Positions 11,245 to 62,927 of a stretch of 64,000 nt of DNA are shown piece by piece. Where the stretch lies: contig NC_135358.1 in assembly GCF_051622035.1 (NCBI RefSeq), positions 24,890,501-24,954,500 of the forward strand, read 5' to 3'. The position numbers and the translations under genes were made by a program. Position 1 is the stretch's first letter, and each line of letters opens with the position of its first letter. A model generated the notes under the pieces. It saw nothing but the letters and a program-made list of their open reading frames with translations. It was not told the DNA's origin and did no database searches. Source of the DNA: Arctopsyche grandis. Lineage: Eukaryota; Arthropoda; Insecta; Trichoptera; Hydropsychidae.

Positions 11245-11892
11245 GTTGACAGCAAAATTAAACCTCCAACACTGAAACGTCAACTAAACACGAGGTTGCC
11301 TTGTGTAGTATTGTGACATGTTTGGCCATAAGACGCAATTTATTCAAACTTTAAATGGGTAGCATAATTGGTTGAAAAATAAATATATACGTCTGGGAAA
11401 CAGTTCAGTTGTACGCCAATTGGATTAAAATAAAATATTTTCATAAATTTATACTAAATTAAATGATTGTCTTCAGTCAGTAGTGCATAAGCATCACCAA
11501 CAACCAGAAATATAATCAAAAAGGTCACAAGTTTCTTGTTTTATAACTTTAAAATAACGATTTTAGTGTATATCCAACTACTGTGGTGTTTATTTTACTT
11601 TTAAATTTAAATTTTGAATTAAACAAATGTCCAAAAGTAAATAATTAACAGCCTTCACCCAATAATAAAACATATGTATAATAAAACTTGTTAATGTATG
11701 TTTATTCTAAATGAACAAACTTGTCAAATCAAAATTATATTTTAATTGTGGATTTTCATTTTTATTATTATTCTGATGATAAACTTTAATGTTTATGGCC
11801 ACATAAAAATGAATGGTTTGCCAAATACGTCAGTAGCTTCAAACGATTAGGCGGGAGCTGTCAACTGCGTTGCAAAAATAACAAAGTCGAAG
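11245..11892. promoter_or_regulatory. Divergent promoter region between RRP36 and the BTB-Kelch gene
   Basis: The two start codons face away from each other across 648 bp. No other gene fits between them, so the core promoters of both must lie here. The sequence is AT-rich without an obvious TATA box in the expected position; the ends next to each start codon are less AT-rich (11244-11330 and 11820-11892). Confidence 0.5.
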
Positions 11893-13826
11893 ATGACAGA
11901 AAAAGAAAACACGATAACGCCAGAAGTGAAAGTGGGAGCTGAAGATGAAGTGACAGCCACTGGTGCTGCTCCTCTATCAGTGATTTTGACCACTGGAGAC
12001 GTCAGCTTCACAGTGAGCCGCGCGCTTCTCTGTCGCCGATCGCATTACTTCGAAGCTATGCTCAATGGACATTTTAAAGAAGCAAATCAGCGACAAATAT
12101 TCTTACACGTAAACACTTTTGTCGTATGGCTATCTTAATATTGCACTTTATTTCAAACTTTCATATTTTATCCCTTATTTCAGACTGTCACTCCTGACGC
12201 TATGGAATGCATATTGAACTATCTAAATTTTGACGTTGCCGATGTAGCTAATTTGGATCATGTCAAAGACACATTTCATGCCGCAAACTATTTCGGACTA
12301 GAGTCTTTGTGTCAAAAAATCGAAAATAAATTAATCAGCATGCTCGACAACAATACGTGTTTTCAAATCTACCAAATTGCCAAAGAACACAACCTCTCAA
12401 ATTTAGAACCTAAATCGAAATCCTTCATATTATATTCATTTAATGAAATCAAATCTCAAATTAGTAAAATTGAAAATATTGATACCCTATACTGGTACTT
12501 GTCACATCATAACTTATACGCCGATGATGAGATTGAAATATTCAAAGCCGGTTGTGAATGGTTAACCAATTGTTTCGATAGTAGTGATGATAAAATCCTA
12601 GTTATTTTAAGTTGTATTATTTATCGCAGTATTGAAAAGGCATCACTCGAATTTATGCTTACAAATAAACATGTCATTGAAAATGAAACAGCTCGACGTG
12701 TCATCGAAGGAATTATTCATATTTCCGACACATATTCTATAGACGGTTTTTTCAAAGATGAAAATAAAGAAAGCTTAAATAAATATTTTGACAAGGAAAC
12801 ATATGAAATTATACATAGAATTTTGCTGTCTAAGAAAAATAGAGTTCCCCCGATTCGACCGTGCGTTATGAAAAAATCACCTGAAAATATAGAAATTATG
12901 ACGTTCAATGTGAATGAAAGGAAACTAGTACAATATATACCGATTCCTGGATATTCTTGGTGGGGACAAAACATTGTTTCGTGGAAGGGATACACTATAT
13001 TTGCTCTGTGCGGAAAGATCAAGATCAACGACACGTGGAATTACAAAGTAAGAATGTACAATTGCTTGACGGAGCAGTGGAATACATTACCATCTTCAGT
13101 TCTCACTCCGAGACGCCACGCTACGGCTATAGTAAACGACGACATGATATACGTAATCGGTGGCTTTGGCCAATTTCGTATTATGCTGAGCAGCGTGCAC
13201 GTTTACAACATCAAAACGGACGAATGGTCAGAGCTACCAGACTTTCCCGAATATAGCACATGCTTAGTCGCGTGCTTTCACAAGGGAAACTTATTCGTTT
13301 CAGGCGAGCACTTATACGTGTACCAGTCCAACCAATGGCAATATTTAGGTACGCTTCGAGTGAGACACAGTGCTATTTTATCACATAACAATCGTCTTTA
13401 TTTCACTGAACGATGGATCAACAAGCTATTTTTCTGGGATAGAGATTTCACGAATTGTGCTCAGCAAGAGCCGAAAAAAATTAAAAAATGTCATTTCAAC
13501 GTAGCTGCTATGTGCAAAATTGGTATGTTTGCTTGATTAATTACAGCTAAACATTTTCTATGTAAATACATTTAAAATTGTTTTATTTGATTTCAGAAAA
13601 CACTGCATACATTTTCTCAGAAGGTGACAATATCGATAACTTGATCGGAGTTGAAATGTGTAATTTAGATGAAAATCCATTTGATGAATCTTGTTCTGAA
13701 ACTGAACTTTTGTGGGTAGATACAGAAACTGATGGCATCTATAATAGTCTGTCTGGTTGTTTTTTACTAGCCGATTCTAAAATCGTAGATGATTCAGTAA
13801 ATAAATATGGAGAACGCTGGTTATGA
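11893..13826 (+). CDS. BTB-BACK-Kelch protein, 594 aa, 3 exons
   Basis: Exons 11893-12108, 12184-13522, 13597-13826; total 1785 nt, 595 codons. Residues about 28-135 form a BTB/POZ domain (TGDVSFTVSRALLCRRSHYF, then SHYFEAMLNGHF and a NYLNFD strand), followed by a BACK domain (about 140-240, with YWYLSHHNLYADDEIEIFKA) and a C-terminal beta-propeller with degenerate Kelch repeats (VRMYNCLTEQWNTLP; VIGGFGQ; VHVYNIKTDEWSELP). Such proteins usually serve as substrate adaptors of Cullin-3 ubiquitin ligases. I cannot assign the orthologue: the Kelch repeats are weak and only one double glycine is intact. AATAAA is at 13918. Convergent with the multi-inhibitor gene at 14865. Confidence 0.9.
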
Positions 13827-14864: not shown

Positions 14865-17800
14865 TCATACTTTTTCGGTTTCCAGCGATTTTTCACTAAC
14901 TTTAATCGCTTCGGCTAAATCAACTTCCTTCTCTGACTTTGATAGAACGTAAACTGGTGGCTCGTATGAAAGAAATCTCTCGTTAAAAGCTGTCACTTTG
15001 ATACTGTTGGCTTTGCCCATTGACGAAACTTTCTTCCGATAGAGCATGATCAACACACTCATTGTACTTATTATAAATGCAGATGCTGCAGCTAGCACTA
15101 TGATAGCTGTGTGATATGTTGTAACTACAGAAACCTAATTAAAATAAATATTATATTAAATACATATGTATATAAGCATATTTGAATATAAAATATCAAA
15201 ATTTGTCAAACTATAAGAATGCTTACTGTTGATTCTGACAGTATTTCTCTGTGTTGCAATGCAATTATTTTATTTTCAGCAATATTCTTAGTTTCAGATA
15301 AATCTAACTTGTGTTGGAATCTGGATTTTTTAATATCCGCTACCATTTTAATATCTTGTTCAACAAATTCTTTGTCTAACGTAAGCTCTTCTTGTTTAAC
15401 CTGAAATTTGCATTTATTAAAATATGTTTATCTGGTAATTTATTGTGATGTTAATTGGTTATCCAATGAATACATACCAATTCTTCCAAATGATAAGCAA
15501 CGTCGACCTTATTGTTTCCAATCACGCTGAACGTTATGTATGTAACATCAGGTTCTGTTAGTATGTCAATTTCCTTATTCTTCAAAGTGGCTCCTAATTG
15601 ACTCAAATTGTTTAAGATTTGCATTTTCATTCGTTCTGCTATTTCACTAGAGAAGACTCCAAAAAATCCCAATGTCACATCCACGGCTTCAATTGGTGTC
15701 GGCACTGAATTAAAATAAATCATGAGATGTGCCAGTTATCACAAAAACCACTCAATTTAATAGATATTTCACTCACGACATATGCTATCTCCTTTCGAAA
15801 ACGTTGAAGTACCCGGTAATTGATTACCAGCTTCATCTACGCACCAACATTTGGCATCGTTGGCACTGCTTTCGCATTGGTTCGGTGTAAATCTTCCACT
15901 GGAATCACAACTCACTTCATACGAAGCTGAGGATCCGACCAATTGCTGTTGCGTTGATAGACAACGACTCTTCACAACTCGACTTTCTTGATTCGTTGAA
16001 GACGTCAACTGATTATTGTTCACCGGTTCGACATCGTCAATCGTGTCTAAAATACTGTATGCTGTCATTTGTCGTACTAGTTCTTCCAATACTGAAATAC
16101 ATATTTCATTTTAATCATTTTCAATTTCATATGATGTAATTTCATAACATTAAAATATTTTGTACCGTCATCTGTCGAACTGACCGAATGTGATACATCC
16201 ATTCGTCTTCTAGCTTGTCTAAAGTTACATTCGGGTTGAGATCCTCTTATAATTGATCCTTTGAGAGGCTCTCCTTTGCCATTGACGCACCAACACACAT
16301 CCACATGTGGCATACATTGGACAGATTCCCATTCTCCAGTATCAGGTCTGCATTTAGGTGTGAATGTCTTTTTCTTATATCTAACAGCTGCTTTTTGATT
16401 TTTCTCCCTCAAACGCTCACACTGACTCAACACTGTAATTTTAAAATATCATTAATAGATTTTTATGATTAAAATCTTTGGAAACCACCAAAACCAACAC
16501 AAAAAAATGTCGAGGTCGAATTTTCTAATGATCTAAAAACTTCACCTATTGAGTAATGATTAATATACCTGGGCAAACCATTTGACAAATTTGTTCCGTC
16601 TGGAAATTATTGTGATTTCCAGAACATCCACCATATTTAAACTGTTGACATTGATTTTTCTCAGGATTGAAGTACCATCTAGTAGAGTTACTAGAGCCTG
16701 CTGGTTGATATCCACATACTCCTTCATCCTTTGACTCGAAACATACTGATCCTAAAATCAATCCACCAATTAGTATTTTAATTGTGAATATTCATTTAAA
16801 TTTAATCTACGTCAGCGAATGCAATTACTTGGTTTAGGACAGCAAACTGGTGGATCGTCTGAGGGTCCTGCGAGCGGAGACAAATGACATTTATGCGACG
16901 ATGGACATGGTGGTTCAGAAGGACCACATCGACGAGCTGGACCATCACTTCCTCCACCGCATGCACTTAGTTCACTGCCTCCAACACACATTGCAACTGG
17001 TGGACATGGAGCCGTAACGCACTGTACATCTGTAAAAATTAATTTCATATTAATAAAATTATTTTTAATATATGTAATGTATATATGTATATACCTATAT
17101 ATTTTTTATTTTTTTAAATTACCATTTAATTTGATACTTACTGACAACCTTGCAGATTTCACCTTCGTTGGGGCAAGACATATCGGCACAAGGATCTCGG
17201 CATTCACAAGTATTACATCCATCGTTATCCAGCTCATATCCATGTTCGCACTTTTTGTTACAATTTATTTCAGGACACTCAGCTGGTGCTATAAATATTT
17301 TTTCGACTTTTTAAATTTATGTTATAATGTACTTACATAAATACATTCACTAACCGAATTACTCAGCGAGATTCGTATGAGTGAAAATTGAAAAAAAATT
17401 AATTGTCCGCTAAAGTACCATTAAATGGTATACGTGGTGCGTTTAAATTGAAAACTGTAAATTTGCATAGTGATTGTATTATATATGAAGATTCAATACA
17501 GTTTTGTTTGTATAAATAACATATATAACATTCAAATATATATAACCTTTTAGTCAATAAAAATATAAAATAGATAATCTATAGAATATAACTTAGTATC
17601 TTTTTAGTACAGGAAGAGCTTTTTGTTCATCTTAAATAAGCCAAACTTTAAAAATATATAACTAAAACTCAGTTATATTGGCAGTTTACTTTATACATAT
17701 CTTGGTGGGAAGACTTATAAATTCATTTAATTTTGTTAAGTTACCTTGACATTTTGGTTGTTCTGGTTTCTTAGTGCGAGTTCCCGGCAGTTCAGCTCCT

Positions 17801-20800
17801 CCATCATCTACACACCAACAATAACCAGCTGTGTGATGGCATTGAACTCGCTCGTAACCCCCGTCAGACTCGCGACAAGCCGGTACGTACAATTGTCTAG
17901 CAGGAATACCCGTCTCAGACGCCTTGTGCAGAAGAATAGCCTATCGAAGCATATCAAAACGTTATAATCACACTTCCATCACACGTTTCAAAAGTCAATA
18001 TTTTTGTTTTCAGCTATACCTGCTGATGTTGACAAGCCGTTTTCAATAGAGGTTGGATACATTGAGTGCCGCATCCATTACTGCAACACCTCATAGTGCC
18101 TCCGCATTGAGCATCTGATTGACAAGCATACTCACACGATCCAGCGACACTCGGTACCAAATATGGGCACTGTCCTATCTTTTGTGGTAAACCTAAATAT
18201 AATGATTTAATATTTTTTTCCGTCAAGAAATATATTATTATTTACAAGTGGATTTATACTTACAGGCAGGTACCGGTGGACAGTAATCGTTGTCGCAAGC
18301 GACGTCTACCATTTGACATTCCAAATTGGCTCCACACGTAACGTCTTGACAAGGATTTCGGCATTGACACATCGGACATTGAGTTTCAGGACTTATTACA
18401 AATCCATAATCACAACCCAAGCGGCATGTCAGCTCAAGGCAATCAGATGTTTCTCGTAGTCTTTACATATTGAAAATATAATTTATTGTCAATATTTTAA
18501 TGTTTATGTTGGTTCAGAGTGGTACAAAGTTGACTGATTATAGTTTCCAATTAAAAATAACGTCTATTTGAACTTTTATCTTTTATAAGAGTTATTATGT
18601 ATTAATTACTATGTATGTATATGCACAGCAAGTGAGATTAGTTAGTCTTCATTTAATTTGCTTTCAGCCTTTGTATAATAATCAATTTTAAAACGTATCA
18701 ACCACCTTTGTGTCATAATAAAATAATTATTTTAAAATAATTCCTTACTGTAAACAATCAATCGCTGCAGTTTCATTGCCCCGAGTAGCCGGTATTTCCG
18801 TACCGAAATTATCAACGCACCAACATTGTTTAAATCCTTTATCGTTAGTCAAACATTGCATCGGCACAAAAGATCCATTGCTGAAACAATCTGGTATCAC
18901 TAAAGCTAGCTTCATACCATCATGGGTTCCTTCCATTTTATCGTTGAAATCTCTGAGGTATTCACACACTTAAAACAATAATGATAAGTATTACTATTTT
19001 GTAAAGAAGAAATATCAAAATCAACATATTATAAACACTCACTCGATGGTGCTCGATCCGAATCAAGTTCGTCCATTTCGTTTATTTCAGGCTTTTCAGG
19101 ATCGGCACAAACTGATCCACAATTTGATGTCAAGCAACACTTTTGCTCTCCTTTGCATTCCATATCCGTTTCACAACTCTTAGTTTCGTTTTTGTCACAC
19201 AATTGATTTACACTGAAAGGACAGAACCCGGGCTTAGAGTCATATTCGTCATCTTCGTCTTCTTCTTCCATTGAATCATCCATTGGACAACAGACAGCCT
19301 GCTTTGTCTTTGCAATAGACGTGCACTGATGACCCGTAGGACATTCATCGTCTTCTTTAGTCGGATCACAATTGATGATATCACCTGTCGTTTCATTCGT
19401 TAAAGGTGCATCGCGCATGCACGGATTCATATAAGTTTCTTTTGGTCGACCTAAACATTAAATATTATCTATAAATAACATATAATCATTTTCACCAAAC
19501 ATTACATAAAAAAATAAACTTACAAACTGGAAAGCTTGGGCAAAATTCATCTTGGCAATTTTGCTCCTTTACTGGAATGCACTCTTCGCCGTCCTTGCAA
19601 GTGAATCCTTGACACGGATCGTCGCATTCACATGTCGGACAACCATCCAGATCCACCCGGAATCCATATTCACATATGGAAGCACATATATTTCTATCGC
19701 ACAAAGAGCCAGTCAACGACCTTCCTGCTGCACGTCCTGTGATTTTTAATATAAATTAGTTTTATTAGTTCTAAGTTTTATCCATGCAATGTATATAAAT
19801 ATATGATTCTTGACTTACCTTTATCGCCTACGAATTTGGAGCAATTTATTGTCGCTGCAGGTCCCATCGATCCCTTAGCTTTGTAGCCGGATCGATCGAC
19901 ACACCAACAGACAAGACCATTCCTCGAACATTGTCTCGATTCAAATGTACCGTCTTTTTCTGAACACTGCGGAATGTATCCACGTCCAGCTCTTTCGTTT
20001 ATCGATAAAGCTTCTGCTAAAGCTTTTTGTTGTAGACATTCTATAAATTAATCAATCACCAATTAAAAACATTCCATAAATATATCTCTTTTAGACTCTA
20101 AAAGACATTCTACCTGTTAAATTTTCAGGAAAAACGCAATGCTTTCCACATGCATCACTGTGGCAACATTTCTGCATCGATGGACACTCTAAATCATGAG
20201 CACAAGGTGCATCACATTCGACTTCCATTGTGCTATTTACTTGAGCACTCGCCGGACACATTCCTGGTTTTTGTATTTTCAATGAAGCAGGACAACACAC
20301 GCCATAATCATTACCTTAAAAAATTACAAATAGTCTAAGATTTATATTCAAATGTATCTTTTATAAATCATATATTTATTCTAAAATTACCTCTTTGTAC
20401 CAAACATTGATACAACGGCGGGCATGCTGGCTTTCCAGGATCTGTACCACATAAGAAAGGCCTGTGAGTATCGCTGATCATCAAGGGCTCACCGACAGGA
20501 CATATATTTTCCAAACTACGACCCCTTTTACCTATAATTCAACCATTCAAAGTTATTTCAATAAATATGTACAACAAAAGACAACATTGAAAATTAACAT
20601 AAAATAGCTTACAAGTTGGAACTGGAGGGCACGGCTGTTTCAAACATGCAACTTCTTCCAATTGACAACTCAATGCTTTGGGACATTTAACTTCAGAGCA
20701 AGGATCCCTACACTGGCATATGGGACAACCATCAGAGGTCACTTTGAAACCATATGGACATAACATACGACATGTATGATCCGCACACGGTGCACGTGCT

Positions 20801-21857
20801 GTAAATTATCAATCTATTAAATTTAATTATTAAACACCAAGCATAGAAATTCTGAACGAAATGCTTACCTGAACAATTGACGAGTCCTCTTGCAGGTGCC
20901 CTCATTCCAGGCAATTCAAAACCAGCTTCATCAACACACCAGCAACTGCCAACAATTTCGTTATCGCATTGTATAGGATCAAAATCACCATTATCCATAC
21001 AGCGAGGTATTCTCACTGATCGACCTTCGGGTCCTAAAGTTCGAGCTCGTCTTGTAGCCGCCATTTGTAAATGCTCACATCCTGATGGATTTTCATTTTT
21101 TTTTGGTTACAAATATACATACATACATATATACTAGACAAGAGTACAATACGTATAGTAAATACTCATACCTGTAAATAATTGCTTGGAACAAATATTT
21201 CCGCATGGACTTTCGCAACATTTCATATCATCATTGCAGTCATTATCTTCTGAACATGTTGCCGCTCCTTCTGGACAAATTCCCCATTTGGTCAATGGTG
21301 GACATCGTCCGTTCCTTTCTGCATCTGTAATAATATCGGATATGAAAGTACAATTTTTTTTTTAAATGTATCGAATATAACAAATGAGAATTTATCACTA
21401 AGCCAAATATGTTGGTAGAAAATGTATAAATATGTATATATGAATATGAAAATAAAAACTGATTCGTTCTTGTTAGCATTTCAAAACCTTTTAAATGCTA
21501 ATATGAACGTATCCGGATATAAGATATACGTAAATATTATTGATACAAATATATACATATAAATAACATGTAAAATTAGAATTGTTTATCTTTTCATTTT
21601 GTTGTACATTGTGTATATTGCAAAAACAAACATTAATTATAATATATGAATGTAAGCTATGTATTGCAAAATATTTCAATAAATTTCGATTAAAATTTCA
21701 TGCATTTGAATTAATTTTACACACATACATATGTTGTACATTAACAAATAATACACTAGTTACTAATTAAAAACTTAAAATACTCACTTGAAAATGATAC
21801 GCATATAAATAGTAATGTAAATATTAGCATGGTTGCACGATTATGTTTTCCTTCCAT
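14865..21857 (-). CDS. Type I membrane protein with WAP, thyroglobulin-1, antistasin and Kunitz domains, 1458 aa
   Basis: Twenty-one exons (minus strand): 21788-21857, 21172-21324, 20869-21081, 20613-20798, 20391-20531, 20114-20314, 19819-20040, 19524-19736, 19043-19450, 18749-18968, 18264-18460, 18020-18192, 17745-17940, 17142-17288, 16829-17029, 16569-16751, 16166-16432, 15777-16091, 15478-15704, 15227-15400, 14865-15134; 4377 nt, in frame throughout. Exon 1 is a signal peptide. Then come four rounds of WAP, thyroglobulin-1 (CWCV core) and antistasin-like (C-x-C/CQC) modules, a Kunitz domain (exon 16, F-KYGGCSGN), two more thyroglobulin-1 domains (exons 17, 18), a Cys-poor domain possibly SEA-like (exon 19), a polar segment, one membrane helix (about residues 1375-1399) and a tail of about 58 residues. 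All these module types occur in protease inhibitors (WAP and Kunitz: serine proteases; thyroglobulin-1: mainly cysteine cathepsins). A surface or shed broad-range inhibitor is an inference. An intron interrupts the 5' UTR just upstream (acceptor at 21876). Confidence 0.9.
16500..16568. repeat. Diverged tail fragment resembling repeat R1
   Basis: In the intron after the Kunitz exon, GTCGAATTTTC...TGATC-AAAA-CTTCACCTATTG resembles the 3' tail of R1 (at 3260-3300 and 7565-7600) with several differences. Weak. Confidence 0.35.
17300..17744. other. Intron of the multi-inhibitor gene, no further exon seen
   Basis: Lies between exons 13 and 14. I searched it because the domain pattern could allow another WAP exon here, but there is no cysteine-rich frame with splice sites and the flanking exons are already in phase. 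Confidence 0.6.
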
Positions 21858-53800: not shown

Positions 53801-56502
53801 TTATGCTAACTTCTTTGCTTTCCCTTTTTTGAAGTTTAAATAAATCATTTCTAAATGATGAAAACCTCCTGTGAAATAATTGAGTATTATAAATGAAGTA
53901 CATAAAAAGGCAACAATCCATCTCAACGTTTGAAAATAATACATAGCCAATGGATACAGAATAACTAGGGCAGTCCAAAATATCAAAGCGACTATAAGCC
54001 CTGACTTTTGAGTATGTTGTATATAATTGTGTGCATCAATAAATTTCCCTGGAAATTTTAAATATATTTTTGTAATTCATAATATGTATAAATATTAGTA
54101 AAAAAAAGTATAAACGCAGAATTAATAAACTTACGATGAGTATAAAAATTATCCAATTTCTCTTCTTTGTTTTTCCAAATATCGTTCAACCAATTTCCTA
54201 AAGATATGGGATCGTCCGGTAAGGAATTTATAGAATATCTGCATCAAAAGTTATTAATGATATTTTTTAATTGTTACCTTAAGCATACCTAGTTAATATA
54301 AGTCAATATTATAATATGTGAATAATCACAAACCTTTTAATATAGAAATGTACTCCAGTTGGAAAGCGCCCAGTAATCATATCTTTCAAACAACATGTTT
54401 CCACTAGTTCTGGTGTGGCTTTCTTGAAGTTCTCATAACCAATTGTAATATCATATACAGCTGTCAACTTTGGTTGAAGTAATTGAACCAGACTGGTGAA
54501 ACCTCTAGTTCTCGGGTGCAACACCTGCCTATATGTCTAAAAATATGTATTTTTATTTTTATTTTCTTCATTATCTTATCAACTACACATTTTAAAATGT
54601 AAACTAACCGGTAAGTTGAATTTCTTTGCAAAAGCATCGCTCTTTTTAATACTTTGCTCAGTCAGATCTGTACCTTCAGGGAATATCAAAAGTTGATGAG
54701 TATAATCCATACCGTATAAATAATTTATCACCGATTTGATTTCGGCTTCATCCTGTTCCCAATTTCTTTTTATGTATGTATAGCAGTTCATTTGCATAAC
54801 CCATCCTATAATTAGAATTAATCAAAACCTAGAAAATAAACTTTGTGTAATAGTTATTATTTTAATATAAACATGCATTTACCAGGTCCTGGTATATGTC
54901 GAATCTCATCTTTCAGCACATATTTCATTCGCAGTTTTTGGTTGAAAATATTGTTTAACATATTCAATGGATTCAAACATCGACTTTTATCACAAGACAC
55001 TCCATTTTTCTGTACGCTAAGCCCACCATTCTGATAACGATATTTGCCATTTAGCACCGGTTCAAATTTATCAACACCCTCTTTCAAATATTGAGGTTTT
55101 CTGGTGGCGTGGAACATGCATAACCACAAATAATTCCAATCTACCCTTGTTCTATGATTTACAACCACCATACAAGTTTCTTCGGGGTCCAAATAATCTC
55201 CGTGTACATATATTTTGGTACCAAATAGCATTTGGAGTATAGCCTGAAATCAAATATGTATTTCTAATTAAATATTAAACGATATTTACTTTTAAATTCA
55301 ATTTGTTTTAAAACAAGTGATTTTTTTTATTGTTTATAGCCTCTATATATATGTATAAATTGGTATTTGTTGTCCTATATACGTATCCAATAAAATTAAA
55401 GTAGGAATAAAAATGAGTAAAAATCAACATGTGCCAAAACGAAACAATCAATTTTCAGTAACACCAAAAAAAAAAGTTCGCAAAATTGGCCGGAAAAAAA
55501 TTATACACTGTAAAGCTTGCTGTAAAAACATGGAAAGCATTGTCTACAATATGATCAATCATCTAAGGATTGATAACAACAGTTGTATCAAGAATAGATG
55601 TTGTTCACAAGATTATTTATCATATGAAGCTTGTCAATCTCGATGTTCCGAAGCTACAAAATGCTATCACCATTCAAAAAGTAACGAATCGTCGGATCAT
55701 TATCATCACAGCGATGCCGCAGTGACATCGGTTGTTAAAACAACCAAAAAATCGGAAGAAAACTTAATGCAAAGATACTATAATGAGATGTGCAACATGT
55801 TAAAGCTGGACGGCTCTGTTTTAGTAACGGAATCGCTTAAAAATCCCACTTGTCTACATAATTAGTAAAAATGATGATTAATTGTACTACATTTTACTGA
55901 CTTAATTATATAAAGAACAATAAATTTTTATGCTGTTTAAACTAAATTATGCTGTTTTGTAATTACAAAAATTGTATTGAATAAAATAAATATATATGTA
56001 TGTACATATGTATAATCGTTATGGACCGCTCAACTATATAATAAAGTTCAATTGCTTTTGGAAGCAATATAAATTAAAGTAGGGATTTATTAGTAGAATA
56101 ATTTCAATATATATTTTTAATAATTTTATTATATGTGGAACCGTTTCAACAAAAATGAATTATTGATTTTTGCCAAAATTATACAATATTTCCATCTTGG
56201 TGATTGTTCAAAAACTATATTAAATATTTTAAATATAGAAAATAAAACTCACCGTTGGATATAGTTCCCAAAACGCAAATATTTTATCTGTGATGACACG
56301 AAATGCATGATTACTAAAAAGTAAAACAGGTATCGCTGGACAATAAAATGCAAGGAAACCTAAAAAATATTAACATACGTATAAATATAAAAAATATTTA
56401 AACTGCAAATAAATAAACAACGTAAATTTTCTCACCGAAAAATATACTAAAATACCAAAGAATGCAGAACGTAATTCCTTTGAACAAATTAACTAATTCC
56501 AT
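53801..56502 (-). CDS. Lysocardiolipin / 1-acylglycerol-phosphate acyltransferase-like, 428 aa, 7 exons
   Basis: Exons (minus strand): 56436-56502, 56253-56359, 54883-55243, 54609-54805, 54334-54536, 54135-54238, 53801-54048; 1287 nt, 429 codons. It belongs to the LPLAT/PlsC family that transfers acyl chains from acyl-CoA to lysophospholipids at the ER or mitochondrial-associated membrane. Motif I NHRTRVDW (catalytic HX4D: His88, Asp93), a PGPGWVMQ region, motif III FPEGTD (220-225), and VLHPRTRGFT are diagnostic of the LCLAT1/AGPAT5 group. Membrane helices are near residues 5-25, 25-45 and in the last exon (two). Exon 3 has about 45 extra residues between motif I and the GPG segment compared with vertebrate LCLAT1 as I know it. 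Donor of exon 5 is GTTTGT, a weak but usable site. LCLAT1 versus AGPAT5 is not decided. Confidence 0.92.
55413..55865 (+). CDS. Small Cys/His-rich protein nested in the acyltransferase intron, 150 aa
   Basis: A single-exon frame on the strand opposite to the acyltransferase, wholly inside that gene's intron 2. It has a basic start (residues 19-29, TPKKKVRKIGRKK), then CKACCKNMESIVYNMINHL and a downstream Cys, spaced like a degenerate BED-type zinc finger, a cluster of cysteines (RCCSQDY, CQSRCSEATKCYHH), a His/Ser stretch and a C-terminal part without cysteine spacing (LMQRYYNEMCNMLKLDGSVL). AATAAA follows at 55919-55924. A nuclear, nucleic-acid-binding role or a domesticated transposon fragment are both possible. 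Frame length in AT-rich DNA, amino-acid composition and the poly(A) signal argue it is real; no homolog is recognised. Confidence 0.6.
   Translation: MSKNQHVPKRNNQFSVTPKKKVRKIGRKKIIHCKACCKNMESIVYNMINHLRIDNNSCIKNRCCSQDYLSYEACQSRCSEATKCYHHSKSNESSDHYHHSDAAVTSVVKTTKKSEENLMQRYYNEMCNMLKLDGSVLVTESLKNPTCLHN
56130..56178 (-). repeat. SINE core fragment
   Basis: GGAACCGTTTCAACAAAAAT followed by a TTTTGCCAAAAT-like stretch is the reverse complement of part of the SINE core (GAAACGGTTCC). Too short for more. Confidence 0.4.

Positions 56503-60068: not shown

Positions 60069-62927
<2,859 letters not shown>

What the first reader, a model, noticed from the sequence alone, without database searches (positions are those of the whole stretch)
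14865..21857. A membrane-anchored multi-inhibitor built from four WAP / thyroglobulin-1 / antistasin rounds
The reconstructed 1458-residue protein repeats the same three disulfide-rich inhibitor modules four times, adds a Kunitz domain and two further thyroglobulin-1 domains, and ends in a membrane helix with a cytoplasmic tail. Soluble proteins mixing such domains are known; I do not know of a characterised transmembrane one with this order. It could act as a surface shield against both serine and cysteine proteases, or be shed.
Basis: partly seen in the sequence, partly recalled or inferred. Interest (0 to 1): 0.75.

Follow-up and report, generated by a model that had tools for sequence, protein, structure and literature searches.

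The report
Membrane-anchored insect mixed protease-inhibitor gene
The gene is real: it codes for a long, cysteine-rich insect protein that strings together four kinds of protease-inhibitor modules and probably ends in a membrane anchor, but a protein with this mix of modules was already described in the silkworm in 2012, so the likely membrane anchor and the small domain in front of it are what is left as possibly new.

Summary
On the minus strand a 21-exon GT-AG model (21857..14865) gives 1454 residues without an internal stop. Pfam finds 4 WAP, 6 thyroglobulin-1, 4 antistasin and 1 Kunitz domain in the stated order. All 3 antistasin matches in its 476-Mb genome lie here.

The domain mix is not new: silkworm BmSPI56 and diamondback-moth PxSPI44. 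The anchor is predicted only: exon 21 has standard splice sites, a hydrophobic segment and a basic flank, but its codon composition is no better than non-coding sequence.

The 'shield against everything' reading is weakened. Antistasin 1 and 3 have Arg at the reactive position; the Kunitz loop has Gly and a six-residue insertion; no WAP domain has the elafin loop. Most likely it is a membrane-tethered inhibitor of trypsin-like proteases with possible cathepsin-binding modules; no activity was tested.

The parts
21788..21857 (-). Exon 1: start codon and hydrophobic signal peptide (residues 1-23)
   Evidence: ATG at 21857, GT donor; the only other hydropathy peak among the 14 windows listed lies at residues 7-26
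21172..21324 (-). Exon 2: WAP 1 (residues 28-70)
   Evidence: PF00095 36.8 bits; 8 Cys
20869..21081 (-). Exon 3: thyroglobulin-1 domain 1 (76-144)
   Evidence: PF00086 61.8 bits
20613..20798 (-). Exon 4: antistasin 1 (150-175, reactive-position Arg156) and a six-Cys 'DPC' segment (to 208)
   Evidence: PF02822 37.7 bits; aligned with the antistasin structure 1SKZ
20114..20531 (-). Exons 5-6: lustrin-type module 1 (218-263) and WAP 2 (270-317)
   Evidence: PF14625 37.9 bits; PF00095 38.6 bits
19819..20040 (-). Exon 7: thyroglobulin-1 domain 2 (323-388)
   Evidence: 54.6 bits
19524..19736 (-). Exon 8: antistasin 2 (408-433, reactive-position Ala414) and DPC segment
   Evidence: 33.0 bits
19043..19450 (-). 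Exon 9: lustrin-type module 2 (476-522), acidic linker, WAP 3 (539-584)
   Evidence: 36.1 and 37.6 bits
18749..18968 (-). Exon 10: thyroglobulin-1 domain 3 (604-674)
   Evidence: 48.9 bits
18264..18460 (-). Exon 11: antistasin 3 (683-709, reactive-position Arg689) and DPC segment
   Evidence: 22.4 bits (cut-off 21.2)
18020..18192 (-). Exon 12: WAP 4 (746-789)
   Evidence: 48.5 bits
17745..17940 (-). Exon 13: thyroglobulin-1 domain 4 (795-863; its first residues lie at the end of exon 12)
   Evidence: 77.6 bits
17142..17282 (-). Exon 14: antistasin 4 (867-892, reactive-position Asn873) and start of DPC segment
   Evidence: 39.8 bits
16829..17029 (-). Exon 15: end of DPC segment and a weak lustrin-type module 3 (940-976)
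   Evidence: PF14625 20.2 bits, below the cut-off of 27
16569..16745 (-). Exon 16: Kunitz domain (980-1036), Gly at the reactive position and a six-residue insertion in the loop
   Evidence: PF00014 63 bits; alignment with boophilin
16166..16432 (-). Exon 17: thyroglobulin-1 domain 5 (1042-1106), then a polybasic RQARRR stretch (1109-1114)
   Evidence: 53.4 bits
15777..16091 (-). Exon 18: thyroglobulin-1 domain 6 (1170-1231)
   Evidence: 48.4 bits
15478..15704 (-). Exon 19: beta-alpha-beta-beta-alpha (ferredoxin-like) juxtamembrane domain, no Pfam family
   Evidence: best model pLDDT 78.9, pTM 0.63; no Pfam match over cut-off
15227..15400 (-). Exon 20: rest of the juxtamembrane segment; reads into a stop if intron 20 is kept
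14865..15134 (-). Exon 21: predicted membrane helix (about 1374-1397), basic flank RKK, cytoplasmic tail of about 57 residues with PPVY, stop codon
   Evidence: AATAAA 52 nt after the stop

Best explanation
One insect gene, the only one of its kind found in its genome, encodes a type I membrane protein of the 'mixed-type' inhibitor kind (BmSPI56 / PxSPI44). Its extracellular part is built from four copies of a WAP-TG1-antistasin-DPC round, with lustrin-type spacers after rounds 1, 2 and (weakly) 4, then Kunitz-TG1-TG1 and a ferredoxin-like domain next to the membrane. Most likely mechanism: antistasin 1 and 3 insert an Arg-containing canonical loop into trypsin-like proteases at the cell surface, antistasin 2 (Ala) may bind elastase-like ones, and the TG1 domains may bind cysteine cathepsins. 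The WAP and lustrin modules, and probably the Kunitz module, serve mainly as a disulfide scaffold or adhesion surface. Shown here by sequence: exon structure, domain order, reactive-position residues, no second gene of this kind in the searches. Inferred: membrane anchoring, one transcript, every inhibitory activity, cell-surface site.
For: Gene model and domains. Rounds 1-4 align along WAP, TG1, antistasin and DPC with 30.4-35.9% identity in all 6 pairs, which fits duplication of a whole round. Antistasin 1 aligns with 1SKZ across the reactive loop with the Arg shared. Reactive-position residues Arg156, Ala414, Arg689, Asn873. All 3 antistasin matches of the genome at E <= 0.001 lie here, and exons 19-21 have no second copy (three overlapping matches in this gene, the next place at E 2.77). 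Exon 19 folds without an alignment to beta-alpha-beta-beta-alpha, best model pLDDT 78.9. Hydrophobic segment followed by YRKK. Published relatives by domain content: BmSPI56, PxSPI44, and a thyropin group with WAP-antistasin said to be shared by insects, crustaceans and acari.
Against: No transcript. Exon 21 scores no better than random open frames by codon use (211 of 384 null windows reach it; 150 of 249 with an independent training set). Exon 19 is weakly coding-like (66 of 744; 54 of 558) and exon 20 less so (568 of 1983; 190 of 1641), although exons 2 and 4, whose domains are certain, also score poorly (498 of 2639 and 225 of 1364). Two of the five exon 19 models have a mean pLDDT of only 55-56. 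The two moth papers do not mention a membrane segment in their main texts. Orthology was not tested by sequence, because no animal sequence collection was available. A 2017 survey lists no WAP protein in two acari genomes, which sits badly with the 2012 statement on acari. Inhibition is read from single residues.
Confidence: 0.55

Rival explanations
1. A soluble, secreted inhibitor: the true transcript ends before exon 21 (for example by keeping intron 20, which adds VSILIV and a stop).
For: Reading through intron 20 gives an in-frame stop after six residues; exon 21 lacks coding composition; BmSPI56 and PxSPI44 are catalogued as serine protease inhibitor genes and no membrane segment is mentioned.
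Against: Exon 21 has a GT-AG intron before it and an 89-codon open frame in matching phase 0; it holds a hydrophobic segment with a basic flank, and an AATAAA lies 52 nt after the stop. A retained intron is the less usual form (general knowledge).
Confidence: 0.25
2. An adhesion or growth-factor-binding surface protein (CRIM1-like) in which the inhibitor folds are structural and little or no protease is inhibited.
For: The Kunitz loop has Gly and a six-residue insertion; no WAP has the elafin loop, and WAP 2 and 4 have the three-residue C2-C3 spacing of anosmin, nawaprin and omwaprin, which I recall as not being elastase inhibitors; lustrin modules, classed as adhesion-associated in one paper; CRIM1 is a type I membrane protein with four antistasin-like domains.
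Against: Arg at the reactive position of antistasin 1 and 3, the loop of antistasin 1 aligned to 1SKZ; six TG1 domains with all six cysteines; a Gly P1 is read as elastase-type by the surveys.
Confidence: 0.25
3. Two neighbouring genes wrongly joined.
For: Introns 1, 10 and 13 are long for this gene (463, 288, 462 nt against a median of 81).
Against: No in-frame stop, matching phases throughout, all on one strand, a signal peptide at the start; moth relatives carry the same domain mix in one protein.
Confidence: 0.05

Closest known systems
Bombyx mori BmSPI56 ('mixed-type' inhibitor; PMC3278429, passages seen)
   Same: One Kunitz with several antistasin and WAP domains plus a 'TSR' unit that the authors call a cysteine protease inhibitor unit, in one insect protein.
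   Different: 3 antistasin and 2 WAP domains reported instead of 4 and 4; 'transmembrane' does not occur in the main text; order not seen (figure not held).
Plutella xylostella PxSPI44 (PMC5309989, passages seen)
   Same: WAP, antistasin, Kunitz, thyroglobulin type I and WR1 domains in one protein. That WR1 and Pfam's lustrin-type module overlap is recalled.
   Different: 3 WAP and 2 antistasin reported; 'transmembrane' does not occur in the main text; sequence not available here.
Arthropod thyropins with WAP and antistasin (I31 group, PMC3407033, passages seen)
   Same: TG1 domains combined with WAP-antistasin, said to be shared by insects, crustaceans and acari.
   Different: Described as a group in a tree of domains; the architecture table is in a supplement that could not be read. 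PMC5673224 (passages) lists 0 WAP proteins in Ixodes and Tetranychus.
CRIM1 (PMC11922885, passages seen)
   Same: Type I membrane protein with four antistasin-like domains and a short cytoplasmic tail.
   Different: Has IGFBP and VWC domains; no WAP, TG1 or Kunitz is named.
HAI-1/HAI-2 (titles and abstract starts in the listing; membrane tether and domain facts recalled)
   Same: Kunitz-containing inhibitors of a membrane-anchored trypsin-like protease at epithelia.
   Different: Quite different architecture; their Kunitz domains are active (recalled), this one is doubtful.
Drosophila CG5639 (recalled as a multi-domain WAP/Kunitz protein; passages give the name only)
   Same: Listed as 'serpin' in a grainy-head table, among peptidases or inhibitors in a Tribolium Hedgehog gene set, and as the fly counterpart of Slpi.
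   Different: Its sequence and architecture were not seen here.

Membership tests
Insect mixed-type inhibitor (BmSPI56/PxSPI44 kind) | Kunitz, WAP, antistasin and thyroglobulin domains in one protein | tested here: met
   against the domain lists
Insect mixed-type inhibitor (BmSPI56/PxSPI44 kind) | Sequence orthology to BmSPI56 or PxSPI44 | not testable with these tools
   no insect protein collection available
Thyropin (I31) | Thyroglobulin_1 domain with six cysteines and CWCV core | tested here: met
   6 of 6 domains (alignment)
Thyropin (I31) | Inhibits C1A cysteine proteases | not testable with these tools
   needs an assay; the p41 fragment (1ICF) is a sequence match to TG1 domain 4, E 3e-8
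Antistasin inhibitor | Antistasin domain with a basic residue at the reactive position in C-x-x-x-C | tested here: inconclusive
   domain met in 4 of 4; Arg in 2 of 4, Ala in 1, Asn in 1
Kunitz protease inhibitor | Kunitz domain with its six cysteines | tested here: met
   63 bits; 6 Cys
Kunitz protease inhibitor | Reactive loop of normal length | tested here: not met
   six extra residues against boophilin; C2-C3 gap 21
Kunitz protease inhibitor | Usable P1 residue | tested here: inconclusive
   Gly where boophilin has Lys; surveys read Gly as elastase-type
Elafin/SLPI-type inhibitory WAP | Eight-residue C2-C3 loop as in elafin | tested here: not met
   gaps 6, 3, 7, 3 in the four WAP domains against 8 in elafin (alignment)
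SEA domain protein | SEA Pfam match, SEA-like fold or GSVVV-type self-cleavage site next to the membrane | tested here: inconclusive
   no SEA match listed, no GS[VI]VV motif; fold beta-alpha-beta-beta-alpha is compatible with SEA (recalled), no SEA entry among the 50 rows shown
Type I membrane protein | Signal peptide plus one C-terminal hydrophobic helix with basic cytoplasmic flank | tested here: inconclusive
   met by hydropathy, but no topology program or experiment, and exon 21 lacks coding composition

The most novel reading that the evidence does not exclude
The arthropod mixed-type inhibitors, so far catalogued simply as serine protease inhibitors, are in truth a conserved family of cell-surface proteins: a membrane-tethered stalk of about 140 cysteines with an undescribed ferredoxin-like juxtamembrane domain, which captures trypsin-like proteases and takes them into the cell through its PPxY-bearing tail.
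Probability: 0.15. Interest if true: 0.6.

Novelty: new member of a known kind. Interest (0 to 1): 0.3.

Why it matters
It suggests that the many-domain insect inhibitor reported in moths also exists in a membrane-anchored form, with a full gene structure and a domain next to the membrane that the passages seen do not mention. If the anchor is real, inhibitor surveys that list these proteins without an anchor need amending, and a fly or moth knock-out could test whether insects use tethered inhibitors at epithelia as mammals use HAI-1 and HAI-2.

Tried and rejected
Rejected: two separate genes (phases and signal peptide); tandem of recent duplicates (rounds only 30-36% identical); SEA domain as an established label (no Pfam match and no cleavage motif; the 50 rows show no SEA entry, which excludes nothing); shedding by a strict furin site (no R-x-[KR]-R; looser R-x-x-R stretches exist, among them RQAR at 1109).

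Led nowhere: viral-contig scan with exon 9 (1 stretch matched a pattern, none confirmed); PDB sequence search with exons 19-20 (best E 0.21); Rfam and tRNA scans of the window (0 and 0). Codon-composition tests did not support exon 21. A Foldseek search of the whole PDB and a model of the Kunitz exon were never accepted by the busy machine. The DUF5503 hit in exon 18 (16.9 bits, cut-off 30) was taken as chance.

Paper searches made: in one open-licence library; most subscription journals are missing. 'Transmembrane' was counted in the main texts of PMC5309989, PMC3278429, PMC5691223, PMC10545863 and PMC5673224 (0 in each), not in PMC3407033, and other words for an anchor were not tried. So the absence of the anchor from print is weak. 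I saw passages only of the papers that I cite, and for HAI-1/2 only a search listing.
Full report
Observation. The region was read and a minus-strand gene model made by dynamic programming with splice and codon scores. I then changed it by hand where frame and splice sites called for it: exon 1 was replaced by the signal-peptide exon at 21857, and four exon ends were moved (start of exon 13, end of 17, start of 18, end of 20). The result is 21 exons, 21857 to 14865, 4365 nt, 1454 residues plus stop, all 20 introns GT-AG, 16 of 20 in phase 1.

Domains. Pfam on the whole protein gives five families over their cut-offs; exon-wise scans place them. The order is: signal peptide, WAP1, TG1-1, antistasin 1, lustrin 1, WAP2, TG1-2, antistasin 2, lustrin 2, WAP3, TG1-3, antistasin 3, WAP4, TG1-4, antistasin 4, weak lustrin 3, Kunitz, TG1-5, TG1-6, juxtamembrane domain, membrane helix, tail. 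The third lustrin module is below the cut-off when scanned alone (20.2 against 27 bits). Each antistasin domain is followed by a segment with six further conserved cysteines, 4 of 4 rounds, for which searches list no Pfam family. The four rounds are 30.4-35.9% identical in the six pairs, so the duplication is old. The many phase-1 introns are the usual mark of shuffled extracellular modules (general knowledge).

Genome context. The window lies in a 475.7-Mb assembly of 189 contigs. Six-frame family searches at E <= 0.001 find 11 TG1 places, 6 in this gene; 9 WAP, 4 here; 3 antistasin, all here; 3 lustrin, 2 here. These counts are lower bounds: one antistasin and one lustrin domain of this very gene were missed. 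Outside this gene no contig holds both a TG1 and a WAP match (TG1 on C2, C7, C8, C10; WAP on C4, C9, C11), so no second gene of this kind was seen. Exons 19-21 have no other copy (next place E 2.77). The neighbour at the 3' side is a convergent BACK-kelch gene whose listed open frame ends at 13533.

Reactive sites. Antistasin 1 aligns with the solved antistasin through the reactive loop; the residue at the reactive position is Arg, Ala, Arg, Asn in domains 1-4 (that this residue is P1 is recalled). The Kunitz domain keeps six cysteines, but against boophilin its loop has Gly in place of Lys and six extra residues. The insect surveys read Ala, Val or Gly at P1 as elastase-type, so Gly alone would not rule out activity; the insertion makes it doubtful. 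The WAP domains have C2-C3 gaps of 6, 3, 7, 3; in the alignments elafin has 8 and anosmin, nawaprin and omwaprin have 3. Thus serine-protease inhibition most likely rests on antistasin 1 and 3 and perhaps 2. The TG1 domains keep all six cysteines, and domain 4 matches the p41 fragment (1ICF, E 3e-8), but TG1 domains may or may not inhibit.

What is known. In Bombyx, BmSPI56 is listed as Kunitz/antistasin/WAP 1/3/2 and described as a mixed-type inhibitor that also carries a 'TSR' cysteine-protease-inhibitor unit (passages). In Plutella, PxSPI44 has WAP/antistasin/Kunitz 3/2/1 with thyroglobulin and WR1 domains (passages). A search for the two names found only these two papers. The wasp Pteromalus is said to lack the WAP/antistasin/Kunitz class (passages). 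A 2012 comparative study states that proteins with thyropin domains associated with WAP-antistasin are shared by insects, crustaceans and acari (passages), but a 2017 survey lists no WAP protein in Ixodes and Tetranychus (passages). CG5639, which I recall as the fly member, appears by name in a grainy-head table, a Tribolium Hedgehog gene set and a table that pairs it with Slpi (passages). 'Transmembrane' occurs 0 times in the main texts of PMC5309989, PMC3278429, PMC5691223, PMC10545863 and PMC5673224. CRIM1 is a known type I membrane protein with four antistasin-like domains (passages).

Verdict. A real, well-supported gene of a known insect kind, with no second copy found, a likely but unproven membrane anchor and a small juxtamembrane domain without a Pfam family. 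Interest is modest.

Noticed in passing
11851-13533, +: A BACK-kelch gene (Kelch_1 49.4 bits, BACK 35.1 bits in the frame 12139-13533; BTB below its cut-off there, the upstream exon was not scanned) lies convergent to the inhibitor gene.
   Followed up: partly
61858-62172, -: An open frame that reads like part of a nuclear-receptor DNA-binding domain, resembling estrogen-related receptor (by eye; no profile search was run).
   Followed up: no
54860-55249, -: An exon with an acyltransferase match (PF01553, 25.7 bits).
   Followed up: no
15135-15226, -: Keeping intron 20 would end the protein six residues after exon 20, giving a soluble form: a possible switch between tethered and secreted inhibitor.
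   Followed up: partly
16166-16432, - (residues 1109-1114): A polybasic RQARRR stretch between TG1-5 and TG1-6 could be a processing site.
   Followed up: no
20613-20798, 19524-19736, 18264-18460, 16829-17282, -: A conserved six-cysteine segment follows each antistasin domain in all four rounds and had no Pfam match.
   Followed up: partly
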